Positions 6,961 through 15,760 of a DNA stretch of 64,000 nucleotides are shown one piece after another; position 1 is the stretch's first letter, and every line of letters begins with the position of its first letter. Under the pieces are notes generated by a model. The model saw nothing but the letters and a program-made list of their open reading frames with translations, did not search any database and was not told the DNA's origin. This DNA is from Quadrisphaera sp. RL12-1S (GTDB lineage Bacteria; Actinomycetota; Actinomycetes; Actinomycetales; Quadrisphaeraceae). A program made the translations under genes and the position numbers. The stretch covers positions 124,001 through 188,000 of the forward strand of contig NZ_JACNME010000004.1 of NCBI RefSeq assembly GCF_014270065.1. Direction: 5' to 3'.

Positions 6961-6976
6961 GTGACCAGCCGGAAAC
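6961..6976 (+). promoter_or_regulatory. GlnR-like box upstream of nitrilase cluster
   Basis: GTGAC-N6-GAAAC matches the a-site/b-site half of the actinobacterial GlnR consensus (GTnAC-n6-GaAAC). It ends 23 bases before the ATG at 7000. GlnR is the OmpR-type nitrogen regulator of many actinomycetes, and the downstream families are named for nitrogen starvation. The second half of a full GlnR box is not clear, and such short motifs can occur by chance. Confidence 0.45.
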
Positions 6977-6999: not shown

Positions 7000-7857
7000 A
7001 TGGCAGCGGGAGGCGCCGCAGGGCGCCGGGGGATCGGGAGCGGCGTCCACGACGCCCACCGCCACCTCGGCGTGCTGCCCGCGCACCCCTTCTACGGCGG
7101 TCCGCCGGTCAACCCCGACACCTCCGCCGTCGCCGACGTCGACGCGCTGCTGCGCTCCCTCGACGAGGAGGGCGTCGAGCGCGCCCTCGTCATCCCCAAC
7201 TACGGCGTCCCGGACGTCAGCGCCTCCTTCGCCCTCAACGAGCTGGTGCTCGAGGCCGCCGCCCGCGACGACAGGGTCCGCGCCGGCCTGTGGGTCTCAC
7301 CCCGCCCGCAGGACGCCGCGCTCACCGCGCAGGCGCTGGCGCTCGCGGGGGAGAGCGGCGTCGTCGCGCTCAAGACGTCGTTCCTGCTCGGCGGGCGCGC
7401 CACCGACGACGCCTGCCGCCCGCAGCTCGACGCCGTCTTCGAGGCCGCGCGCCAGCACGGCCTCGTCGTCCACGTCCACACCAGCCCGGGCGCGGCCTCC
7501 GACGTCGACGAGGTGGGCGAGCTGGTGGAGCGCTACGGCGACGACGTGGCGATCCACCTCGTGCACCTCGGCGGCGGGATGAGCGGCCACATCAAGCTCA
7601 TCGGCTCGCGCTTCTTCGACTGGATCGCGGCCGGTAAGCGCGTCTACACCGACACCTCCTGGGCCATCGGCTTCGCGCCGCGCTGGCTGGCCGCCGAGGT
7701 GCAGCGCCGCGGGACCGGCCACGACCGCGTGCTCTACGCCTCCGACGAGCCCTGGGGCGACGCCGCCGGAGAGCTGGCGCGCCTGCGCGCCGCCGCCGGA
7801 GACGGAGAGCTGGCCCGCCTGTGGCTCACCGAGAACGCCGCAGCCCTCTACGGCTGA
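7000..7857 (+). CDS. amidohydrolase (TIM-barrel) at head of nitrilase cluster
   Basis: This 285-residue protein of the amidohydrolase-2 family has VHDAHRHLG near residue 12 (metal-binding HxH-like strand), VVHVHTSPG, HLVHLGGGMSG and the terminal ASDEPWGD, whose Asp is the usual catalytic residue. Such enzymes hydrolyse or decarboxylate cyclic or amide substrates in one metal-dependent step. It lies 51 bp ahead of the Sll0783-like gene and appears to be the first operon gene. It is not one of the seven standard Nit1C families as I know them, so it may supply or clear a pathway intermediate. ATG 7000 has no good ribosome-binding site, so leaderless translation is possible. Confidence 0.75.
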   Translation: MAAGGAAGRRGIGSGVHDAHRHLGVLPAHPFYGGPPVNPDTSAVADVDALLRSLDEEGVERALVIPNYGVPDVSASFALNELVLEAAARDDRVRAGLWVSPRPQDAALTAQALALAGESGVVALKTSFLLGGRATDDACRPQLDAVFEAARQHGLVVHVHTSPGAASDVDEVGELVERYGDDVAIHLVHLGGGMSGHIKLIGSRFFDWIAAGKRVYTDTSWAIGFAPRWLAAEVQRRGTGHDRVLYASDEPWGDAAGELARLRAAAGDGELARLWLTENAAALYG

Positions 7858-7908: not shown

Positions 7909-8457
7909 ATGACCACCACCGCCGCCGCCACGTCCGACGAGACCGCCGCCGCCATCAAGGAGGCCGCCGAGAAGTCGAAGGCCGAGATCCAGCACCCCTC
8001 GCTGGAGAAGGGCAGCAGCCTGTACGGCTCCACCAAGATCTTCCCCGACTACCAGGCCGAGCCCGGCCAGAGCTACCTCACGCTCGTGCACGGCATCGCG
8101 CACGAGTCGTCGGTGAGCTTCGTGGCGATCCTCCAGGCCACCCGCGCGCTGCGGAAGGGCTTCGACTCGGTCCTGTACTTCTACGGGCCCGGCTCGATGA
8201 ACTGCATGGCCACCCGCGGCTTCCCGACGACCGGCGACTCCGCCTTCCCCGGCGAGCACAACATCAACAACAGCCTGGAGACGTTCATCGCCGAGGGCGG
8301 CACGGTCTACTGCTGCCGCTTCGGGCTGTCGCTGCACGGGCTGCGCGAGGAGGACCTCATCGCCGGCGTCATCCCCTGCCACCCGCTCGACGTGCAGGAC
8401 GCGCTCATCCACTACGCCAGCAAGGGCGCCATCATCAACAGCACCTACATGGTCTGA
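7909..8457 (+). CDS. MSMEG_0572/Sll0783 family nitrogen-starvation protein
   Basis: This 182-residue protein follows a good ribosome-binding site (GAGGAG). After a polar helix it carries ILQATRALRKGFDSVLYFYG, RGFPTTGDSAFPGEHNINNS and the Cys pair TVYCCRFGLSLHG. I recognise it as the Sll0783/MSMEG_0572 family. The Synechocystis member was reported to be needed for polyhydroxybutyrate accumulation in nitrogen starvation; the biochemical role is unknown. The fold resembles DsrE-like sulfur-relay proteins, which is only my impression. It is the second gene of the operon. Confidence 0.88.
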   Translation: MTTTAAATSDETAAAIKEAAEKSKAEIQHPSLEKGSSLYGSTKIFPDYQAEPGQSYLTLVHGIAHESSVSFVAILQATRALRKGFDSVLYFYGPGSMNCMATRGFPTTGDSAFPGEHNINNSLETFIAEGGTVYCCRFGLSLHGLREEDLIAGVIPCHPLDVQDALIHYASKGAIINSTYMV

Positions 8458-8480
8458 GGCTGACTGATGGGACTGCTCCC

Positions 8481-9566
8481 GTGAGCCTGGACACGAGGGT
8501 CGCCGTCGCCATCCGCGGCGTGCGCACCGCCACCGGCGTTCCGGTGAACCGCCGCGGGGGCGCAGGCCCCAGCGACGACGGCCACGTCCGCCTCGGCGGC
8601 CGCGGCGCCGCGCTGCCGATCGACCCGACCAGCCCCTACCTCGTCCGCGACGGACGGCTGCTGCGCTCCACCGGTGGCCTCACCGAGGAGCTGTGGGTCG
8701 ACACCGGGCTGGAGGCCGAGGCCGTCGCCAGGCCGCGCTTCTACGACCTGACCACCGCCGACGGCGTCCGCTACGACCAGCTCGCCCGCCTGCACGGCGC
8801 CGACGTGCTCGCCACCACGGTGGTGCAGACGTGCATCCGGTACGCCGAGGACCAGCGATGCCGGTTCTGCTCCATCGAGGAGTCGCTGCGCGCCGGTGCC
8901 ACCACCGCCGTCAAGCGGCCCGAGCAGCTGGCGGAGGTGGCCGAGGCCGCCGTTCGGCTCGACGGCGTGCGGCAGGTGGTCATGACCACCGGCACGTCCA
9001 ACGGGCGCGACCGCGGCGCCCGCCACGTGGCCCGCTGCGTGCGCGCGGTGAAGGAGGCCGTCCCGGGCCTGCCCGTCCAGGTGCAGGTGGAGCCCCCGGA
9101 GGACCTCGGCGCGCTCGCCGAGCTGCGGGACGCCGGGGCCGACTCCCTCGGCATCCACGTGGAGTCCCTCGACGACGACGTCCGCCGGCGCTGGATGCCC
9201 GGCAAGGCCACCGTCTCGCTGGAGCGCTACCGCGAGGCGTGGGCCGAGGGCGTGCGCCTGTTCGGCCGCAACCAGGTCTCGACCTACCTCATCCTCGGGC
9301 TGGGGGAGGATCCTGACGAGCTCGTCGCCGGGGCCTCCGAGCTGGCGGCGATGGGCGTCTACCCGTTCGTCGTCCCGTTCCGGCCGATCGCCGGGACGCT
9401 CGCCGTGGACGTCGACGGCGCCCGCCCGCCCGCCCCCGAGGTGCTCGCCGACGTCACGGCCCGCGTGGCTGCCGACCTGCGCGCCCGCGGGATGCTGAGC
9501 AGCGGCCAGAAGGCCGGGTGCGCGGCGTGCGGGGCGTGCAGCGCGCTGCAGGCGGCCGGGGCGTGA
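8481..9566 (+). CDS. MSMEG_0568 family radical SAM protein
   Basis: This 361-residue radical SAM enzyme starts at GTG 8481, 23 bp after the previous gene. The cluster cysteines are Cys118, Cys127 and Cys130, a CX8CX2C spacing instead of the standard CX3CX2C, followed by SIEESLRAG. TTGTSNGRDRG and VQVQVEPPEDL are typical SAM-barrel strands. The C-terminus has three further cysteines (347, 350, 353; CAACGAC) that could bind a second cluster or zinc. It would make 5'-deoxyadenosyl radicals for an unknown step in the nitrile-related pathway. Its stop overlaps the next start by four bases. Confidence 0.9.
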   Translation: MSLDTRVAVAIRGVRTATGVPVNRRGGAGPSDDGHVRLGGRGAALPIDPTSPYLVRDGRLLRSTGGLTEELWVDTGLEAEAVARPRFYDLTTADGVRYDQLARLHGADVLATTVVQTCIRYAEDQRCRFCSIEESLRAGATTAVKRPEQLAEVAEAAVRLDGVRQVVMTTGTSNGRDRGARHVARCVRAVKEAVPGLPVQVQVEPPEDLGALAELRDAGADSLGIHVESLDDDVRRRWMPGKATVSLERYREAWAEGVRLFGRNQVSTYLILGLGEDPDELVAGASELAAMGVYPFVVPFRPIAGTLAVDVDGARPPAPEVLADVTARVAADLRARGMLSSGQKAGCAACGACSALQAAGA

Positions 9567-11101
9567 GCGTCGTCGACAGCACGACCGACCTCGGCAGCGT
9601 CCTGCTGGGCGCCGTGCCCGCGCCGGCCCGCGCGCAGGCGCCGTCGTGGTGCATCGGGGTGGCTGACGCTGCGGGCGTCGCCGCCCACCGCGCGCTGCGG
9701 CGCGAGGTGTTCGTCGCGGAGCAGGGGCTCTTCGGGGCCGGCGCCGGTCGGACGGAGACCGACGACGTCGACGACGACCCGCGCGCCGTCGTCCTCGTGG
9801 CCCGCGAGGTGACCTCCGACGGTGCTCCGGGTCGGGTGCTCGGCGGCGTGCGGCTGGCTCCCGCGGGCCAGCACCTCACCGGTGGGGTCGACGTCGGGTG
9901 GTGGGCCGGCTCGCGGCTCGCGGTGGCGCGCGACGCCCGCGCCTCGCGGATCGGACCCGCACTCGTCCGGGCCGCCTGCGCGCACGCCGAGGCGACCGGG
10001 GCGCTGCGGTTCGACGCCACGGTGCAGGCCGCCGCCGAGCCCATGTTCCGCAGGCTCGGCTGGGAGCGCGTGCGCGACGTCGTCGTCCCCGGGGCCGAGG
10101 CGGTGCCGCACGTGCTGGTGCGGTGGCCCATCGGCAGGACCGCCGCCCTGCTCGAGGCCACCAAGGCTCCGCTCGGCGGGCTGCTGGCGGGGTTGCTGAC
10201 CGGTGGCGCGCACCTCGGTGACGACTCCGCGCCCGTGCCGGGCAGCGACCTCGTGGCCGCGTGCGACGCCGTCGTTCCGTCCATGGTCGAGCGCGACCCG
10301 GAGTGGGCGGGCTGGTGCGCGGCGCTGGTCAACGTCAACGACGTCGCCGCGATGGGCGCTGTGCCAGTGGGGCTGCTCGACTCCGTCGGCGCTCGAGACG
10401 CCTCCTTCGCCGCCCGCGTGCTGTCCGGGCTGCGCGCCGCGTGCGAGGCGTACGGGGTGCCGCTGCTCGGCGGCCACACGCAGCTCGGGGTGCCCGCAGC
10501 GCTGTCGGCGACAGCGCTCGGCCGGGTCCCGACCGGCTGCGAGCCCGTGCCGGGCGGTGGAGGTCACCCCGGGCACGCGGTGTGGCTCGCCGTCGACACC
10601 GCCGGCGGCTGGCGTCGCGGGTACGCCGGGCGCCAGTGGGACTCCACCACGTCCCGCGCCCCGGAGGTGCTGCGCGCGCTGACCGCCGTGGTGGGGCGGG
10701 TCCGGCCCGCGGCGGCCAAGGACGTCTCCATGGCCGGCGTGGTCGGGACGCTGGCGATGCTCGCCGAGGCCAGCGGCACCGGCGCGGTGCTCGACGTGGC
10801 CGCCGTGCCCCGGCCCGCGGGCGCTACCCCGGGGGACTGGCTGACGTGCTTCCCCGGCACCGGCTTCCTGCTCACCGACGACGCGTCCGCCGACCTGGCC
10901 GCCGCGGTCCCCGACCTGCTGCGGGCCGAGGGGTTCCGCCTCGAGCGGTGCGGCGAGCTCACCGACCCCTCCGCCGGCTCATCGGGCGTGCTCCTGCGCT
11001 GGCCCGACGGCGAGACCACCCCCGGCACGACCCCGGACGGCCGCGCCACCGGGCTCGGTCCTGCCACCCCAGCAGCCCCCCACCTGGAGGTGAACCCCTG
11101 A
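9563..11101 (+). CDS. MSMEG_0567/Sll0787 family GNAT-AIR synthase fusion
   Basis: This 512-residue two-domain protein starts at GTG 9563 within GTGA overlapping the radical SAM stop. Residues about 25-195 form a GNAT acetyltransferase (AHRALRREVFVAEQGLF, ARDARASRIGPALVRAA, FRRLGWERV). Residues about 200-490 resemble AIR synthase/PurM-type ATP-binding proteins (GDDSAPVPGSDLVAACDAVV, NVNDVAAMGAVPVGLLDSV, GGHTQLGVPAALSATALG). A PurM-like enzyme uses ATP to activate an amide-like oxygen, fitting assembly of a nitrogen-rich molecule; this is inference. In many Nit1C clusters these domains are separate genes. Confidence 0.88.
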   Translation: MSVVDSTTDLGSVLLGAVPAPARAQAPSWCIGVADAAGVAAHRALRREVFVAEQGLFGAGAGRTETDDVDDDPRAVVLVAREVTSDGAPGRVLGGVRLAPAGQHLTGGVDVGWWAGSRLAVARDARASRIGPALVRAACAHAEATGALRFDATVQAAAEPMFRRLGWERVRDVVVPGAEAVPHVLVRWPIGRTAALLEATKAPLGGLLAGLLTGGAHLGDDSAPVPGSDLVAACDAVVPSMVERDPEWAGWCAALVNVNDVAAMGAVPVGLLDSVGARDASFAARVLSGLRAACEAYGVPLLGGHTQLGVPAALSATALGRVPTGCEPVPGGGGHPGHAVWLAVDTAGGWRRGYAGRQWDSTTSRAPEVLRALTAVVGRVRPAAAKDVSMAGVVGTLAMLAEASGTGAVLDVAAVPRPAGATPGDWLTCFPGTGFLLTDDASADLAAAVPDLLRAEGFRLERCGELTDPSAGSSGVLLRWPDGETTPGTTPDGRATGLGPATPAAPHLEVNP

Positions 11102-12057
11102 TGCTCACCGTCGCGGCGGTCTCCGCCGGCTTCACCCGAGACCTCGACGCCTGCTTCGCGCAGGTCGAGAGCCTGGTCGCCGAAGCGCGCGAGCGCGGCG
11201 TCGGCCTGCTCGCCCTGCCCGAGGCCGCCATGGGCGGCTACCTGTCGACCCTCGGCTCCCACGGCGACGTCGCCGACCCCACCCGTCCGTCCCGCTCCCA
11301 GCCGCCCGCGCTGCGCCTCGACGGTCCCGAGGTGGCGCGCCTGCGCGCGATCGCCGGAGACCTCGTGCTGTGCGTCGGCCTGTGCGAGCTCGCCCCCGAC
11401 GAGCCGGGCGCCGACGGAGGGGGAGCGCGGTACAACACCGCCGTCTGCCTCACCGGCGACGCCGTGCTCGGCGCCTACCGCAAGGTCCACCAGCCCCTCG
11501 GAGAGCATCTCTCCTACGCCGCGGGCAGTGGCTTCGGCGCCGTCGAGACGCCGGTCGGACGGATCGGGATGCAGATCTGCTACGACAAGGCCTTCCCCGA
11601 GGCGGCCCGCGCGCTCGCGCTGGACGGGGCCCAGCTGGTCGTGAGCATGTCGGCCTGGCCGGCCTCGCGCACCGGGGCCGCAGCCGTGCTCGCCGACGAC
11701 CGCTGGACCCACCGGTTCGACCTGCTCGACAGGGCCAGGGCGCTCGACAACCAGCTGTTCTGGGTGGCCTCCAACCAGGCAGGCACCTTCGGCTCCCTGC
11801 GCTACGTCGGGTCGGCTAAGGTGGTCGACCCCGGCGGCGCGGTGCTGGCCCACACGGGGACCGGTCCCGGGACGGCGGTGGCCACCATCGACCTCGACGG
11901 CGGCCTGACCGCCGCGCGCGGCGGGATGTACCACCTGCGCGACCGGCGCCCCGACGCCTACGGCGCTGCGGTGTCGGCCATTCCCGCACCGCTGCCCGAG
12001 CCGGTCTGGGAGCGGGCAGCTGCCTCGGGCCTGCGGCAGGGGGCCGGTCGTGCCTGA
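11101..12057 (+). CDS. nitrilase of Nit1C type (Nit6803 family), catalytic triad intact
   Basis: This 318-residue carbon-nitrogen hydrolase has Glu41 in LALPEAAMGGY, Lys128 in GAYRKVHQPLGE and Cys160 in GMQICYDKAFPEAAR, the Glu-Lys-Cys triad needed for nitrile hydrolysis. The family converts nitriles to carboxylic acids and ammonia. Nit1C clusters have been linked to assimilation of nitriles and to growth on cyanide in pseudomonads; the natural substrate here is not known. Its ATG overlaps the upstream TGA (TGATG), and it overlaps the next gene by eight bases. A paralogue with lost catalytic residues follows at 13614. Confidence 0.92.
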   Translation: MLTVAAVSAGFTRDLDACFAQVESLVAEARERGVGLLALPEAAMGGYLSTLGSHGDVADPTRPSRSQPPALRLDGPEVARLRAIAGDLVLCVGLCELAPDEPGADGGGARYNTAVCLTGDAVLGAYRKVHQPLGEHLSYAAGSGFGAVETPVGRIGMQICYDKAFPEAARALALDGAQLVVSMSAWPASRTGAAAVLADDRWTHRFDLLDRARALDNQLFWVASNQAGTFGSLRYVGSAKVVDPGGAVLAHTGTGPGTAVATIDLDGGLTAARGGMYHLRDRRPDAYGAAVSAIPAPLPEPVWERAAASGLRQGAGRA

Positions 12058-12352
12058 GGCCACGTTCCGCGTCCGCTGGCCCGACGGCAGCACCGACGCC
12101 TGCTACTCGCCCAGCCTCGTCGTCCACGACCACCTCGCGCCGGGCGCGGAGTACCCGGTGGCCGACTTCGCCGCCAGGGTCGGGGCGGCCATGGACGAGG
12201 CGTCCGAGCGGGTCCGCGCCAGGTACGGCATGGCGTGCACCTCCGCAGCCGCCACGGCCGCCGGCGTGCGCTCGCGCGCCGCGCGCTTCTCGGCCGACGG
12301 CGTCGTGCGGGTGCTGTCCATCGAGCCGCCGCTGCCGGGGGGCGTCTCATGA
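12050..12352 (+). CDS. MSMEG_0570 family nitrogen-starvation protein
   Basis: This 100-residue protein starts at GTG 12050 inside the end of the nitrilase gene. It opens with ATFRVRWPDGSTDACYSPS and has AGAEYPVADFAARV-like spacing, typical of the MSMEG_0570 family found in Nit1C loci. It contains two cysteines (about residues 18 and 63). No enzymatic motif is seen; a small accessory or carrier role is possible. Its TGA overlaps the ATG of the flavoprotein. Confidence 0.87.
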   Translation: MPEATFRVRWPDGSTDACYSPSLVVHDHLAPGAEYPVADFAARVGAAMDEASERVRARYGMACTSAAATAAGVRSRAARFSADGVVRVLSIEPPLPGGVS

Positions 12353-13617
12353 GCGGGGACCTCGACGGGCGCCACCTGCCCGTCGTCGTCGTCGGGGGAG
12401 GACAGGCGGGCCTGTCGATGAGCTGGCACCTGGTGCGGGCGGGCGTGGAGCACGTCGTCCTGGAGCGCGGCACCGCCTGCCACGACTGGGCCGACCGCCG
12501 CTGGGACGCGTTCACGCTGGTCACCCCCAACTGGCAGTGCCAGCTGCCGGGGTACGGCTACGACGGCGACGACCCCGACGGCTTCATGACCCGCGACCAG
12601 GTGGTGGCGTGGCTGCGCCGCTACCCCGCGACCTTCGGCGCGCCGCTGCACGAGGGTGTCGCCGTGACGGCGCTGCGCGAGCGGCCCGGGGGCGGCTTCA
12701 CCCTGGCCACCACCGCGGGCCAGCTGACCGCGGACCAGGTGGTCGTCGCCACCGGCGGCTACCACCAGCCGGTGCTGCCGGCCGTCTCCCAGCGCCTCCC
12801 CGACGACGTCGTCCAGCTCCACTCGGCCGCCTACCGGTCGCCGGAGGCGCTGCCCGACGGCGCGGTGCTCGTGGTCGGGTCGGGGCAGTCCGGCGCGCAG
12901 ATCGCCGAGGACCTGCACCTGGCCGGCCGCGACGTGCACCTGGCGCTGGGGAGCGCGCCCCGGGTGGCGCGGCGCTACCGCGGCCGCGACTGCGTGGCGT
13001 GGCTGCACGACATGGGCGTCTACGACGTCGGGATCGAGGCGCACGCCGGCGGGCTGTCGAAGCGCGAGTCGACCAACCACTACGTCACGGGCCGTGACGG
13101 CGGGCGCGACATCGACCTGCGGGCCTTCGCTCGCGAAGGGATGCACCTGCACGGGCGGCTGGAGCGGGTGCGAGGTGCCTCGCTGCGCTTCACCCGCACG
13201 ACGGCGGCCTCGCTGGACGCCGCCGACGCCGTCGCCGAGTCCATCAAGGACGACATCGACAGGTACATCGCCCGGCAGGGCATCGACGCGCCGGCGGAGC
13301 CGAGGTACGTCCCGGTGTGGCGCCCACCGTCGCCGCAGGACGAGGACGTCGACCTCGACCTGCGCGCCGCGGGCGTCTCCGCCGTCGTCTGGGCGGTCGG
13401 GTTCCGCGCCGACTTCCGGTGGGTGCAGGTCGGGGTCTTCGACGGCACCGGGGCGCCCACCCACCGCCGCGGCACCACCGCCGTGCCGGGGCTGCACTTC
13501 CTCGGGCTGCCCTGGCTGCACACGTGGGGGTCGGGGCGCTTCGCGGGCGTGGCGCGCGACGCCGAACACCTCGCCGAGCAGGTGGTGCGGCGCGCGGCGC
13601 CCAGCCGCGCCGCGTGA
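12349..13617 (+). CDS. MSMEG_0569 family flavin-dependent oxidoreductase
   Basis: This 422-residue protein begins at ATG 12349 (ATGA overlap). It has an N-terminal FAD-binding Rossmann motif (VVVVGGGQAGLSMSWHL) and a second nucleotide motif VVGSGQSGAQIAEDL near residue 178, like flavin monooxygenases that use NADPH. It closes with GLHFLGLPWLHTWGSGRFAG, which carries the conserved FAD contact. It probably oxygenates an amine or related nitrogen compound within the cluster pathway, which is inference from the fold. The next gene starts in its stop codon. Confidence 0.9.
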   Translation: MSGDLDGRHLPVVVVGGGQAGLSMSWHLVRAGVEHVVLERGTACHDWADRRWDAFTLVTPNWQCQLPGYGYDGDDPDGFMTRDQVVAWLRRYPATFGAPLHEGVAVTALRERPGGGFTLATTAGQLTADQVVVATGGYHQPVLPAVSQRLPDDVVQLHSAAYRSPEALPDGAVLVVGSGQSGAQIAEDLHLAGRDVHLALGSAPRVARRYRGRDCVAWLHDMGVYDVGIEAHAGGLSKRESTNHYVTGRDGGRDIDLRAFAREGMHLHGRLERVRGASLRFTRTTAASLDAADAVAESIKDDIDRYIARQGIDAPAEPRYVPVWRPPSPQDEDVDLDLRAAGVSAVVWAVGFRADFRWVQVGVFDGTGAPTHRRGTTAVPGLHFLGLPWLHTWGSGRFAGVARDAEHLAEQVVRRAAPSRAA

Positions 13618-14540
13618 GGGACGGCGCGGGGGTGGCCGACGAGGTGGTGCTCGCCGCGGTCGCGGGGCACTTCGGTCGCGACGTCGGGAGGACCCTGCTC
13701 AAGCTCGAAGGCGTGGTCGGTGCGGCCCGCTCGGCCGGCGCGCACCTGCTGGTGCTGCCGGACGCGACGATCGGCGGCTACGTCGACGACCTCGTGGACC
13801 CCGCCCTCGAAGGGGAGGGCGCCCTGCCGCCCGCCGTCGACCTCGACGGGCCGGAGGTGGCGCGGGTGGCGGAGCTCGCCGGCGACCTCGTCGTGTGCTT
13901 CGGCATCAGCGAGCGCGCCGCGAGCGACGAGCCGGGACGGGCCGCCCGCCACAACACCGCCGTCTGCGTGCACCGCGGCCGCGTGCTCGGGGTGCACCGC
14001 AAGGTGCACCTGCCGCTGGGGGAGTCGCGCGCGTACCGCGCCGGTGACCGCTTCTGCGCGTTCGACACCCCGGTGGGCCGGCTGGGGATGCTCGTCGACT
14101 TCGACAAGACCTTCCCCGAGAGCGCCCGCACGCTGGCGCTCGACGGGGCGCAGGTGCTGGCGTGCCTGTCGGCGTGGCCGGCGAGCGCCACCGAGCGCGC
14201 AGACCGGATCCGCCTGGACCGCCAGGCCCGCCTGTTCGACCTCTACGACGCCGCCCGCGCCGCGGAGAACCAGGTCTGGCTGGTCTCCTCCAACCAGACC
14301 GGCGTGCAGGGCGGCCTGCGCTTCCTCGGCCAGGCCAAGGTGGTCGACCCGGCGGGGGAGGTGGTGGCGCGCACCTGGACGCAGGGCGGCATGGCGGTGG
14401 CGCCGGCGCGGGTGGCCGACGGGGTCGCGCGGGCGCGGCGACGGGTCCACCACCTGCGCGACAGGGTGCTGTCCGCCTACGACTGCGACCGCCCCTTCCC
14501 CGACGCCCCCGACGACGACGAGGGGGGAGGCGACCGGTGA
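13614..14540 (+). CDS. nitrilase-fold protein lacking catalytic Cys and Glu (predicted pseudo-enzyme)
   Basis: This 308-residue nitrilase-superfamily protein is paralogous to the one at 11101. Shared blocks include LDGPEVAR, NTAVC, HRKVH.PLGE, PVGR.GM and DKTFPESAR. At the triad positions Glu is replaced by Asp50 (LVLPDATIGGY) and Cys by Asp162 (GMLVDFDKTFPE); Lys130 is kept. Without the thiol nucleophile normal nitrile or amide hydrolysis is not expected. It may bind an intermediate, scaffold, or regulate the active nitrilase by mixed oligomers. GTG 13614 overlaps the flavoprotein stop (GTGA). The frame is clean, so it is under selection and not a decaying gene. Confidence 0.88.
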   Translation: MRDGAGVADEVVLAAVAGHFGRDVGRTLLKLEGVVGAARSAGAHLLVLPDATIGGYVDDLVDPALEGEGALPPAVDLDGPEVARVAELAGDLVVCFGISERAASDEPGRAARHNTAVCVHRGRVLGVHRKVHLPLGESRAYRAGDRFCAFDTPVGRLGMLVDFDKTFPESARTLALDGAQVLACLSAWPASATERADRIRLDRQARLFDLYDAARAAENQVWLVSSNQTGVQGGLRFLGQAKVVDPAGEVVARTWTQGGMAVAPARVADGVARARRRVHHLRDRVLSAYDCDRPFPDAPDDDEGGGDR

Positions 14541-15760
14541 GGGTCTGGCTCGCCACGTACTCCACCAAGCCGCGGGGCGGGGTGGTCCACACGCTCGGGC
14601 TGGCCGAGGCGCTCGCCGCCCGCGGCCACGACGTCACCGTCTGGACGCTCGGACGCGGCGGCGACACGACCTTCTTCCGGCCCGTCGACGCCGCCGTGCG
14701 CGTCGAGGCGGTGCGCTTCGCCCCGGTGGACGGTGAGGACGTCGGCGCGCGCATCGTGCGGTCCATCGACGTGCTCGGCGGGGCGCTCGCGGAGCACCTG
14801 CTGGCCCCCGGGCCGCCCCTGCCGGACGTCGTCCACGCCCAGGACTGCATCTCCGCCAACGCGGCGCTCGCCCCCGTGCGCGCCGCGGGCGTGCCGCTGG
14901 TCCGCACCGTCCACCACCTCGACGCCTTCACCACCCCGCAGCTCGTGGCCTGCCACGACGCCGCCGTCCGCGAGCCTGACGCCCTCGTCTGCGTCTCCGC
15001 GGCGGTGGCGGCCGAGGTGCGGGCCGGCTACGGGCTGGAGGCGGCGGTGATCCCGGGTGCCGTCGACGCCGGCCGGTTCGCCGCCGCCGCGCGCCGCGAC
15101 GACGCCGCGGCGAGCGCTTCCCGCCGGGCCTGGCGGTCCCGGCTGGGCCGGTACGTGCTCGCGGTGGGCGGCGTCGAGCCGCGCAAGGGCAGCCTCGACC
15201 TGCTGGAGGCGTGGGCGCTGCTGCGCCGCCACCGCCTCGACCTGCGCGACGTCGCGCTGGTGCTCGCCGGCGGGGAGACCCTCTTCGACCACCGCCCGTA
15301 CCGGGAGGCGTTCGACGCGCGCTCCGCCGAGCTGGCCCGCGAGCTGGGCGCGGCGCCGGTGGTGCTGGGACCTGTCGACGACGACGCGCTGCCGTCCCTC
15401 GTGGCCGCCGCGGACGCCGTGGCCTTCCCCTCCACGAAGGAGGGGTTCGGGATGGCGCCGCTCGAGGCCCTCGCCGCGGGCGTGCCGGTGGTGGCCCGCG
15501 GCCTGCCGGTGCTGCGCGAGGTGCTCGGGGAGGCGGCGCTCTTCGCCGGTGGCGTGCCGGACCTCGCCGACGCCCTGGCCGCTGCCCTGGACGGACGCGC
15601 CCCGAGCGCGGGACTGGGCCGAGCGGTCGCCGCCGGGTACGGCTGGGAGAGGGCCGCCGCCGCCCACGAGGCGTTCTACGAGGGGCTGGTGGGAGACCGC
15701 AGCGCCATGCCCGGGGCCACGGTGAGACCCTCGAGGCCGGACCCGGCCTCCGGGTCCTGA
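14537..15760 (+). CDS. MSMEG_0565 family glycosyltransferase
   Basis: This 407-residue GT-B glycosyltransferase follows a strong ribosome-binding site (GGGGGAGG), GTG 14537 overlapping the previous stop. The N-terminal domain opens with VWLATYSTKPRGGVVHTLGLA. The C-terminal half has YVLAVGGVEPRKGSLDLLEA and the nucleotide-sugar signature FPSTKEGFGMAPLEALAAGVPVV typical of GT4. It is the last gene of the Nit1C-like operon and probably glycosylates the product. The C-terminal coding end contains a GGACCCGG/CCGGGTCC hairpin just before the stop, which might act as terminator. Confidence 0.9.
   Translation: MRVWLATYSTKPRGGVVHTLGLAEALAARGHDVTVWTLGRGGDTTFFRPVDAAVRVEAVRFAPVDGEDVGARIVRSIDVLGGALAEHLLAPGPPLPDVVHAQDCISANAALAPVRAAGVPLVRTVHHLDAFTTPQLVACHDAAVREPDALVCVSAAVAAEVRAGYGLEAAVIPGAVDAGRFAAAARRDDAAASASRRAWRSRLGRYVLAVGGVEPRKGSLDLLEAWALLRRHRLDLRDVALVLAGGETLFDHRPYREAFDARSAELARELGAAPVVLGPVDDDALPSLVAAADAVAFPSTKEGFGMAPLEALAAGVPVVARGLPVLREVLGEAALFAGGVPDLADALAAALDGRAPSAGLGRAVAAGYGWERAAAAHEAFYEGLVGDRSAMPGATVRPSRPDPASGS

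What the first reader, a model, noticed from the sequence alone, without database searches (positions are those of the whole stretch)
13614..14540. Cysteine-less nitrilase paralogue inside a Nit1C-like cluster
The second nitrilase-fold protein keeps Lys130 but has Asp162 in place of the catalytic Cys and Asp50 in place of the catalytic Glu, while the first copy (11101) has a full Glu-Lys-Cys triad. Both are in one translationally coupled operon. The clean frame argues for a selected non-hydrolytic role, such as a binding, scaffold or regulatory subunit.
Basis: partly seen in the sequence, partly recalled or inferred. Interest (0 to 1): 0.8.

Follow-up and report, generated by a model that had tools for sequence, protein, structure and literature searches.

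The report
Conserved nucleophile-less nitrilase partner in Actinomycetes
A nitrogen-starvation gene cluster of soil actinobacteria encodes two sister proteins of the nitrilase family, and one of them has lost its catalytic cysteine and its general-base glutamate yet is kept under strong selection across the group, so it probably works as a non-hydrolysing partner rather than as an amidase.

Summary
The window protein (13614-14540, nit2) keeps Lys130 and Glu137 but has Asp162 for the catalytic Cys and Asp50 for the catalytic Glu; its paralogue (11101-12057, nit1) has Glu41-Lys128-Glu135-Cys160. In 127 of 127 distinct nit2 sequences (window included) the Cys site is Asp, and in 0 of 127 is the Glu site Glu (Asp 113, Gly 7, His 3, Tyr 2, Gln 2); 123 of 124 nit1-type sequences read Glu-Lys-Glu-Cys, the last being partial but Cys-bearing. 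nit2 is one clade (support 99), as conserved as nit1, with dN/dS 0.08-0.14. It sits in the cluster known in Mycobacterium smegmatis as gpr (MSMEG_0565-0572); by gene order it is MSMEG_0566, annotated there as an aliphatic amidase. The cluster resembles Nit1C but lacks the Nit6803-type nitrilase. Best reading: an ancient pseudo-nitrilase acting with nit1, most likely as a non-catalytic subunit. That step is inferred: no interaction or activity was tested. An Asp-based new activity, or ligand sensing, is not excluded.

The parts
13614..14540 (+). nit2: nitrilase-fold protein with Asp50 (Glu site), Lys130, Glu137, Asp162 (Cys site); MSMEG_0566-type by synteny
13761..13763 (+). codon 50 (Asp) at the catalytic Glu position
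14001..14003 (+). codon 130 (Lys), retained
14097..14099 (+). codon 162 (Asp) at the catalytic Cys position
11101..12057 (+). nit1: active-type paralogue, Glu41-Lys128-Glu135-Cys160; MSMEG_0571-type by synteny
12050..12352 (+). MSMEG_0570 family (TIGR04042)
   Evidence: 121.1 bits, cut-off 79.85
12349..13617 (+). MSMEG_0569 family flavin-dependent oxidoreductase (TIGR04046)
   Evidence: 643.5 bits, cut-off 498.35
14537..15760 (+). MSMEG_0565 family glycosyltransferase (TIGR04047); follows nit2 in 77 of 80 named loci, the other 3 showing no further cluster gene
9563..11101 (+). MSMEG_0567: GNAT plus AIR-synthase-like fusion (start approximate)
8454..9566 (+). MSMEG_0568 family radical SAM protein (start approximate)
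   Evidence: 500.8 bits, cut-off 303.7
7909..8457 (+). MSMEG_0572/Sll0783 family
   Evidence: 249.8 bits, cut-off 109.85
7000..7857 (+). amidohydrolase at the head of the cluster (start approximate)
   Evidence: PF04909
6961..6976 (+). GlnR-box-like GTnAC-n6-GAAAC at the head of the cluster (consensus recalled)

Best explanation
nit2 is a pseudo-nitrilase that arose once from a Cys-type carbon-nitrogen hydrolase related to nit1 and became fixed in the GlnR-type nitrogen-starvation (gpr / MSMEG_0565-0572) cluster of Actinomycetes. Shown: it has lost the Cys nucleophile (always Asp in the 127 seen) and the Glu general base (Asp, Gly, His, Tyr or Gln), keeps Lys130, Glu137, Trp188, Asn227 and the fold, is under purifying selection, and nearly always occurs with nit1. 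Inferred: it performs no Cys-based amide or nitrile hydrolysis; it pairs with nit1 across the superfamily's dimer surface, or in a higher oligomer, as a non-catalytic subunit whose Lys-Glu-Asp pocket holds a ligand or keeps the subunit in shape; nit1 does the hydrolysis.
For: Asp at the Cys site in 127 of 127 distinct nit2 and Glu at the Glu site in 0 of 127; nit1-type Glu-Lys-Glu-Cys in 123 of 124. nit2 is one side of a branch with SH-aLRT 99; its sister rows (support 86) keep Cys, so the loss is derived. Mean pairwise identity 0.68 (52 nit2) against 0.64 (55 nit1), 93 against 89 columns conserved at 95% or more. dN/dS 0.083-0.141 in 6 pairs among 4 same-genus genomes. In 394 genomes of the class 49 have a hit at E 1e-40: 32 have two copies, 16 only a Cys-type copy and 1 only an Asp-type copy. 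In a genus sample 20 of 148 genomes have hits and all 20 have two. Loci L101, L128 and L093, without nit1 nearby, have it elsewhere in the genome. Confident nitrilase-fold model (pLDDT 91, pTM 0.89; best PDB matches carbamoylases and amidases). [quoted passage not shown]
Against: No physical interaction was shown, and no complex prediction was possible. 16 of the 48 nit1-bearing class genomes lack nit2, so nit1 can do without it. nit1 and nit2 are often apart: four genes lie between them in the Gordonia/MSMEG order, and in L101 and L128 nit1 is on another contig. One genome (G065) has nit2 with neither nit1 (E 1e-30) nor the cluster. The pseudo-active site is as conserved as a real one, which a pure scaffold would not need. 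The pattern of sites fixed differently in nit1 and nit2 (4 of 7 in the two helices after the nucleophile, p about 0.003) is weak support at best: the helices were chosen after the fact, and at several of these sites the nit2 residue also occurs in deep Cys-type homologues.
Confidence: 0.5

Rival explanations
1. nit2 is a working enzyme with new chemistry: Asp162 in the nucleophile elbow, with Lys130 and Glu137, acts as acid/base or carboxylate nucleophile on a pathway intermediate.
For: Asp162 is invariant (127 of 127) whereas the Glu site varies; Lys130, His132, Glu137, Trp188 and Asn227 are 52 of 52; nit2 is as conserved as nit1; one genome keeps nit2 without nit1.
Against: No Asp-type nitrilase-fold enzyme turned up in the paper searches made (open PMC papers only); the general-base site is not conserved; nit2 is nearly always found with nit1.
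Confidence: 0.22
2. nit2 is a homomeric ligand-binding protein (sensor or carrier) for the substrate or product of nit1, possibly serving the glycosyltransferase or the flavin enzyme next to it.
For: The pocket is conserved; the next cluster gene is the MSMEG_0565 glycosyltransferase in 77 of 80 loci; nit2 goes with the 0569 flavin gene over its cut-off (both 31, nit2 only 2, 0569 only 2, neither 14 of 49 genomes; Fisher p 2e-8; the 14 are from two genera of one family, so not independent).
Against: Glycosyltransferase and 0569 occur without nit2 (L152, L154; 0569 in L177 and L179).
Confidence: 0.2
3. nit2 still hydrolyses C-N bonds, by another residue or by Asp.
For: Fold and Lys are kept.
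Against: Cys lost in 127 of 127 and Glu in 127 of 127; no conserved Cys that is new to the family except a partly conserved one at position 213 (40% of 52).
Confidence: 0.05
4. nit2 is a decaying pseudogene or a sequencing artefact of this genome.
For: None found.
Against: 127 distinct sequences, three further genomes of the same genus at 90-94% identity, dN/dS about 0.1.
Confidence: 0.01

Closest known systems
gpr operon of Mycobacterium smegmatis, MSMEG_0565-0572 (PMC6039565)
   Same: All eight gene types are present. The order 0572, nit1, 0570, 0569, rSAM, 0567, nit2, GT of Gordonia loci L132 and L144, with matching pieces in the genus-g37 loci, equals the MSMEG numbering, so nit1 = MSMEG_0571 and nit2 = MSMEG_0566 by synteny. 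A GlnR-type box heads the window's cluster.
   Different: Order differs in the window, with an added amidohydrolase at the head. The paper calls MSMEG_0566 a putative aliphatic amidase that could contribute to nitrogen assimilation; the family lacks the residues for that. The MSMEG sequences themselves were not fetched by name.
Nit1C cluster (Podar et al. 2005, PMC1199592, passages) and Nit6803 (TIGR04048)
   Same: 0572-, rSAM-, GNAT/AIRS-, 0570- and flavin-type genes are shared.
   Different: Nit1C has one subfamily-1 nitrilase. In the window that nitrilase is absent and two carbon-nitrogen hydrolases of another branch stand in its place, one without its nucleophile.
Grass NIT4A/NIT4B2 heteromeric nitrilases (PMC5154151, PMC6214922, passages)
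   Same: Two nitrilase paralogues that work as one complex.
   Different: Plant enzymes; loss of the nucleophile was not mentioned in the passages seen. Heteromerisation here is only inferred.
Carbamoylases and amidases of the superfamily (6lei, 5h8i, archaeal nitrilase NF040852)
   Same: Nearest solved folds; nearest NCBIfam models are archaeal nitrilase (79.9 bits) and N-carbamoylputrescine amidase (71.5 bits).
   Different: nit2 scores far under the curated cut-offs of 500 and 410 bits and lacks Cys and Glu.

Membership tests
Nitrilase (CN_hydrolase) superfamily | Sequence profile PF00795 | tested here: met
   111.4 bits against cut-off 23.2
Nitrilase (CN_hydrolase) superfamily | Nitrilase fold | tested here: met
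   AlphaFold2 model pLDDT 91; Foldseek E 7.3e-24, TM 0.79 to 6lei_A
Active nitrilase/amidase of the superfamily | Catalytic Cys | tested here: not met
   Asp in 127 of 127 distinct nit2
Active nitrilase/amidase of the superfamily | Catalytic Glu (general base) | tested here: not met
   Glu in 0 of 127 distinct nit2
Active nitrilase/amidase of the superfamily | Catalytic Lys and second Glu | tested here: met
   Lys130 and Glu137 in 52 of 52 aligned representatives
Active nitrilase/amidase of the superfamily | Hydrolysis of an amide or nitrile | not testable with these tools
   Needs an assay
Nit1C cluster | Nit6803-type subfamily-1 nitrilase | tested here: not met
   nit1 25.5 bits against cut-off 502.6, nit2 not listed; no TIGR04048 match at E 1e-60 in the own genome
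Nit1C cluster | 0572, rSAM, GNAT, AIRS, 0570 and flavin genes | tested here: met
   TIGR04044, 04043, 04045, 04050, 04042 and 04046 over cut-off; GNAT and AIRS are in one gene
gpr / MSMEG_0565-0572 cluster | Eight gene types with two carbon-nitrogen hydrolases | tested here: met
   identity of MSMEG_0566 and 0571 rests on synteny and paper annotations
gpr / MSMEG_0565-0572 cluster | GlnR control | tested here: inconclusive
   Box at 6961-6976: 1 exact match in the window, 0.07 expected, 7 of 100 shuffles had one; within one mismatch in 40 of 64 relatives against 7.1% of 1280 random stretches; binding not shown
Heteromeric nitrilase | Complex of the two paralogues | not testable with these tools
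   Only co-occurrence and site patterns seen

The most novel reading that the evidence does not exclude
The family is a nitrilase-fold enzyme in which Asp has replaced the Cys nucleophile to run a new, non-hydrolytic reaction in a nitrogen-starvation pathway whose chemistry is still unknown, with nit1 handling a C-N hydrolysis before or after it.
Probability: 0.2. Interest if true: 0.85.

Novelty: new variant of a known kind. Interest (0 to 1): 0.62.

Why it matters
It argues against an annotation ('aliphatic amidase', 'carbon-nitrogen hydrolase') carried by a gene found in many Actinomycetes and relevant to models of the gpr / Nit1C-like pathway, whose substrate is unknown to me from the papers seen. 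It gives a clear, testable case of a pseudoenzyme kept beside its active paralogue in the nitrilase superfamily, and it shows that this cluster has a two-part hydrolase of another branch where Nit1C clusters have the Nit6803-type nitrilase.

Tried and rejected
Rejected: a replacement nucleophile among the other Cys (Cys95 is in 12 of 12 and Cys118 in 11 of 12 homologues that keep the catalytic Cys). Rejected: a local mutation or pseudogene. Rejected: membership in the Nit6803 family. Rejected: carriage in the IMG/VR viral contigs (63 pattern matches, none a relative; the phage record collection was not searched). Led nowhere: the relaxed GlnR pattern over the whole window was at chance level (16 seen, 18.7 expected); the stricter pattern was tried after that list had shown the site, and its consensus is recalled. 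Of 32 plasmid records with a hit, 28 were under 60% identity; the one of these that I fetched, Sinorhizobium L176, has Glu-Lys-Glu-Cys and none of the cluster genes. Nine paper searches (open PMC papers only) showed no described Cys-less nitrilase of this cluster; most of the listed papers, including PMC11049912 on Nit1C in Pseudomonas, were not opened. Weak points: the named-genome scan used a pattern containing the Asp ([IV]DYDKTFP) as one of its two, which favours Asp-bearing loci; the class and genus scans used whole-protein similarity and gave the same result. Rows were sorted into nit1 and nit2 by the better score, so 'nit1-type' includes deep homologues, three of which are sister to nit2 in the tree. 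Of 317 matched stretches, 36 weak, 2 short, 1 with an unknown residue and 27 duplicates were dropped before the count of 251. Some genomes are fragmented, so a missing copy may be unseen. No model coordinates were available, so no distances in the pocket were measured, and the place of the two helices in the dimer surface is recalled.

Full report
The observation. The frame 13614-14540 encodes a 308-aa nitrilase-fold protein (PF00795 111.4 bits). Its paralogue at 11101-12057 is identical at 143 of 288 aligned positions. At the four catalytic sites the paralogue reads Glu41, Lys128, Glu135, Cys160; the window protein reads Asp50, Lys130, Glu137, Asp162. The same correspondence is seen against the solved nitrilase 3ivz. 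Four junctions from nit1 to the glycosyltransferase overlap by 4 to 8 bases, in line with translational coupling.

The neighbourhood. Six cluster genes match NCBIfam families over cut-off (MSMEG_0572, rSAM 0568, 0567, 0570, 0569, 0565), with an amidohydrolase in front. Neither nitrilase belongs to the Nit6803 family of Nit1C: nit1 scores 25.5 bits against a cut-off of 502.6 and nit2 is not listed. No NCBIfam model is reached by the window's nit2 over its cut-off; 23 aligned relatives match amidase, nitrilase and other models of the superfamily, and for the first of them the listed scores are all far under cut-off.

How widespread. A whole-protein search of 394 genomes of the class gives a hit at E 1e-40 in 49. 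Of these, 32 have two copies, 16 have only a Cys-type copy and 1 (G065) has only an Asp-type copy. In the 32 two-copy genomes the Asp-type copy was read in 32 and has Asp at the Cys site in 32; the partner was read in 14 of 32 and has Glu-Lys-Glu-Cys in 14. In 148 genomes of one genus (unnamed; by gene order probably Mycobacterium) 20 have hits and all 20 have two; the Asp-type copy is Asp-Lys-Glu-Asp in 20 of 20, and the second copy, read in 10 of 20, is Glu-Lys-Glu-Cys in 10. In 296 genomes of the phylum 6 have such a hit, three of them outside the class; the five copies of those three are all Cys-type. For L093, L101 and L128 nit1 lies elsewhere in the genome; L110, a 4.9-kb contig, was not tested. 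Pooling everything fetched, after dropping 66 of 317 stretches (36 weak, 2 short, 1 with an unknown residue, 27 duplicates), 127 of 127 distinct nit2 have Asp, 0 of 127 have Glu at the Glu site, and 123 of 124 nit1-type rows read Glu-Lys-Glu-Cys, the last one partial but Cys-bearing. One search used a pattern that contains the Asp, so it favours it; searches did not.

Origin and selection. In a maximum-likelihood tree of 133 rows the 52 nit2 rows are one side of a branch (SH-aLRT 99). The nearest rows (support 86) are three Cys-type homologues from outside the class. Two of those genomes, G512 and G532, also have a Cys-type copy inside a cluster with 0567, 0570 and 0569 and no nit2. So the Cys was present first and its loss is derived, with one origin the simplest account. 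The tree was built by the quick method with long outgroup branches, so the rooting within the group is only moderately sure. nit2 is under constraint: mean pairwise identity 0.68 against 0.64 for nit1, 93 against 89 columns conserved at 95% or more, and dN/dS of 0.083-0.141 in six comparisons among four genomes of the genus. Lys130, His132, Glu137, Asp162, Asp164, Lys165, Trp188 and Asn227 are 52 of 52, while the Glu site holds Asp 43, Gly 3, His 3, Gln 2, Tyr 1. The general base is free to vary; the Asp at the Cys site is not.

Structure. The model of nit2 is confident (pLDDT 91, pTM 0.89) and matches carbamoylases, amidases and nitrilases. The model of nit1 is fair (pLDDT 81, with a low stretch at 132-138). 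Apart from the nucleophile, seven sites are fixed (90% or more) to different residues in nit1 and nit2; four of the seven lie in the two helices that follow the nucleophile (p about 0.003 by random draw, but the helices were chosen after seeing the sites). At several of the seven the nit2 residue also occurs in deep Cys-type homologues, so part of the change is on the nit1 side. That these helices belong to the A-interface is recalled; the passages seen say only that an A-interface dimer is preserved in most members (PMC6214922; PMC6637149). This is at best weak support for a mixed dimer.

Link to known biology. Gordonia loci L132 and L144 show the order 0572, nit1, 0570, 0569, rSAM, 0567, nit2, GT, and the genus shows the matching pieces (0572-nit1-0570-0569 and 0567-nit2-GT). 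That is the numbering MSMEG_0572 down to MSMEG_0565, which makes nit1 MSMEG_0571 ('hydrolase, carbon-nitrogen family') and nit2 MSMEG_0566 ('aliphatic amidase') in tables of PMC4222082 and PMC4617892 (passages). The passages list expression ratios for both genes (48.0 and 8.9 in the first, 4.1 and 3.0 in the second) in papers on nitrogen starvation; I did not see the table heads. GlnR binding upstream of MSMEG_0572 is reported (PMC4222082, PMC3662644, passages). PMC6039565 (sections 15 and 17 read) names the operon gpr, shows that its induction depends on GlnR and that its deletion makes starved cells peroxide-sensitive, reports that single genes could not be made responsible, and suggests that MSMEG_0566 could contribute to nitrogen assimilation as an amidase. 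The present data argue against that last step. In the window a GTnAC-n6-GAAAC box lies at 6961-6976 (1 found, 0.07 expected, 7 of 100 shuffles had one). A box with at most one mismatch lies in the 430 bases at the cluster head in 40 of 64 named relatives (exact in 11) against 7.1% of 1280 random stretches (exact in 0.8%); 24 of 64 show none. GlnR control of this cluster is therefore likely, not shown.

Mechanism. The loss of both nucleophile and base makes Cys-type hydrolysis by nit2 very unlikely. Near-obligate company of nit1, common descent with it, and the reported need of grass nitrilases for heterocomplexes (PMC6214922; PMC5154151; passages) make a non-catalytic partner subunit the best single reading, at about even odds. 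Against it: 16 of 48 nit1-bearing class genomes lack nit2, the two genes are often apart, one genome has nit2 alone, and the pocket is conserved like a real active site. The last point keeps the bolder reading, an Asp-based new enzyme, open. nit2 also goes with the flavin gene 0569 (31 both, 2 nit2 only, 2 0569 only, 14 neither of 49; Fisher p 2e-8), but the 14 come from two genera of one family, so this is not independent evidence.

Novelty. The cluster and the gene are known. That the gene's family is without nucleophile and base in every sequence seen, forms one clade and stands with nit1 where Nit1C clusters have the Nit6803 nitrilase was not found in the paper searches made (open PMC papers only, most listed papers not opened). 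I rate it a new variant of a known kind.

Noticed in passing
window 6961-6976: GlnR-box-like GTGACCAGCCGGAAAC at the head of the cluster; a similar box lies at nearly the same distance in many of the Nocardioides/Aeromicrobium-type loci and further upstream in Rhodococcus-type loci.
   Followed up: partly
L156-L161, L163-L165, L217-L221 (family f36, genera g79 and g94): 14 genomes with a nit1-only cluster; none of the 14 has the 0569 flavin gene over its cut-off anywhere.
   Followed up: partly
L153 7866-8678 (genome G065): A lone nit2 with Asp-Lys-Glu-Asp outside any cluster; no nit1 at E 1e-30 in that genome.
   Followed up: partly
L175 1036-13422: The whole cluster on a Rhodococcus qingshengii plasmid with the same IS3-family transposase (WP_231783803.1) on both sides, a possible route of transfer.
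   Followed up: no
L166, L167 (genomes G108, G357): Near-cut-off Nit6803-type nitrilases (484 and 460 bits against 502.6) with none of the cluster genes found nearby.
   Followed up: no
L094 (Nocardioides sp. TF02-7): Several cluster genes (0572, rSAM, 0567, nit1) match in two pieces each, possibly frameshift errors of the assembly. In G004 (L012) nit1 is also in two pieces, near a contig end.
   Followed up: no
L097, L105, L142; L044, L046, L048, L051, L052, L054, L056: The former Glu site is His in one nit2 clade and Gly in at least two places of the tree, so this site has drifted more than once.
   Followed up: no
PMC6039565, discussion: The paper proposes that MSMEG_0571 is read through a UGA as a selenoprotein into 0569; in the loci seen here nit1 has Cys as nucleophile, and 0570 often lies between nit1 and 0569. 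The UGA proposal was not tested.
   Followed up: no
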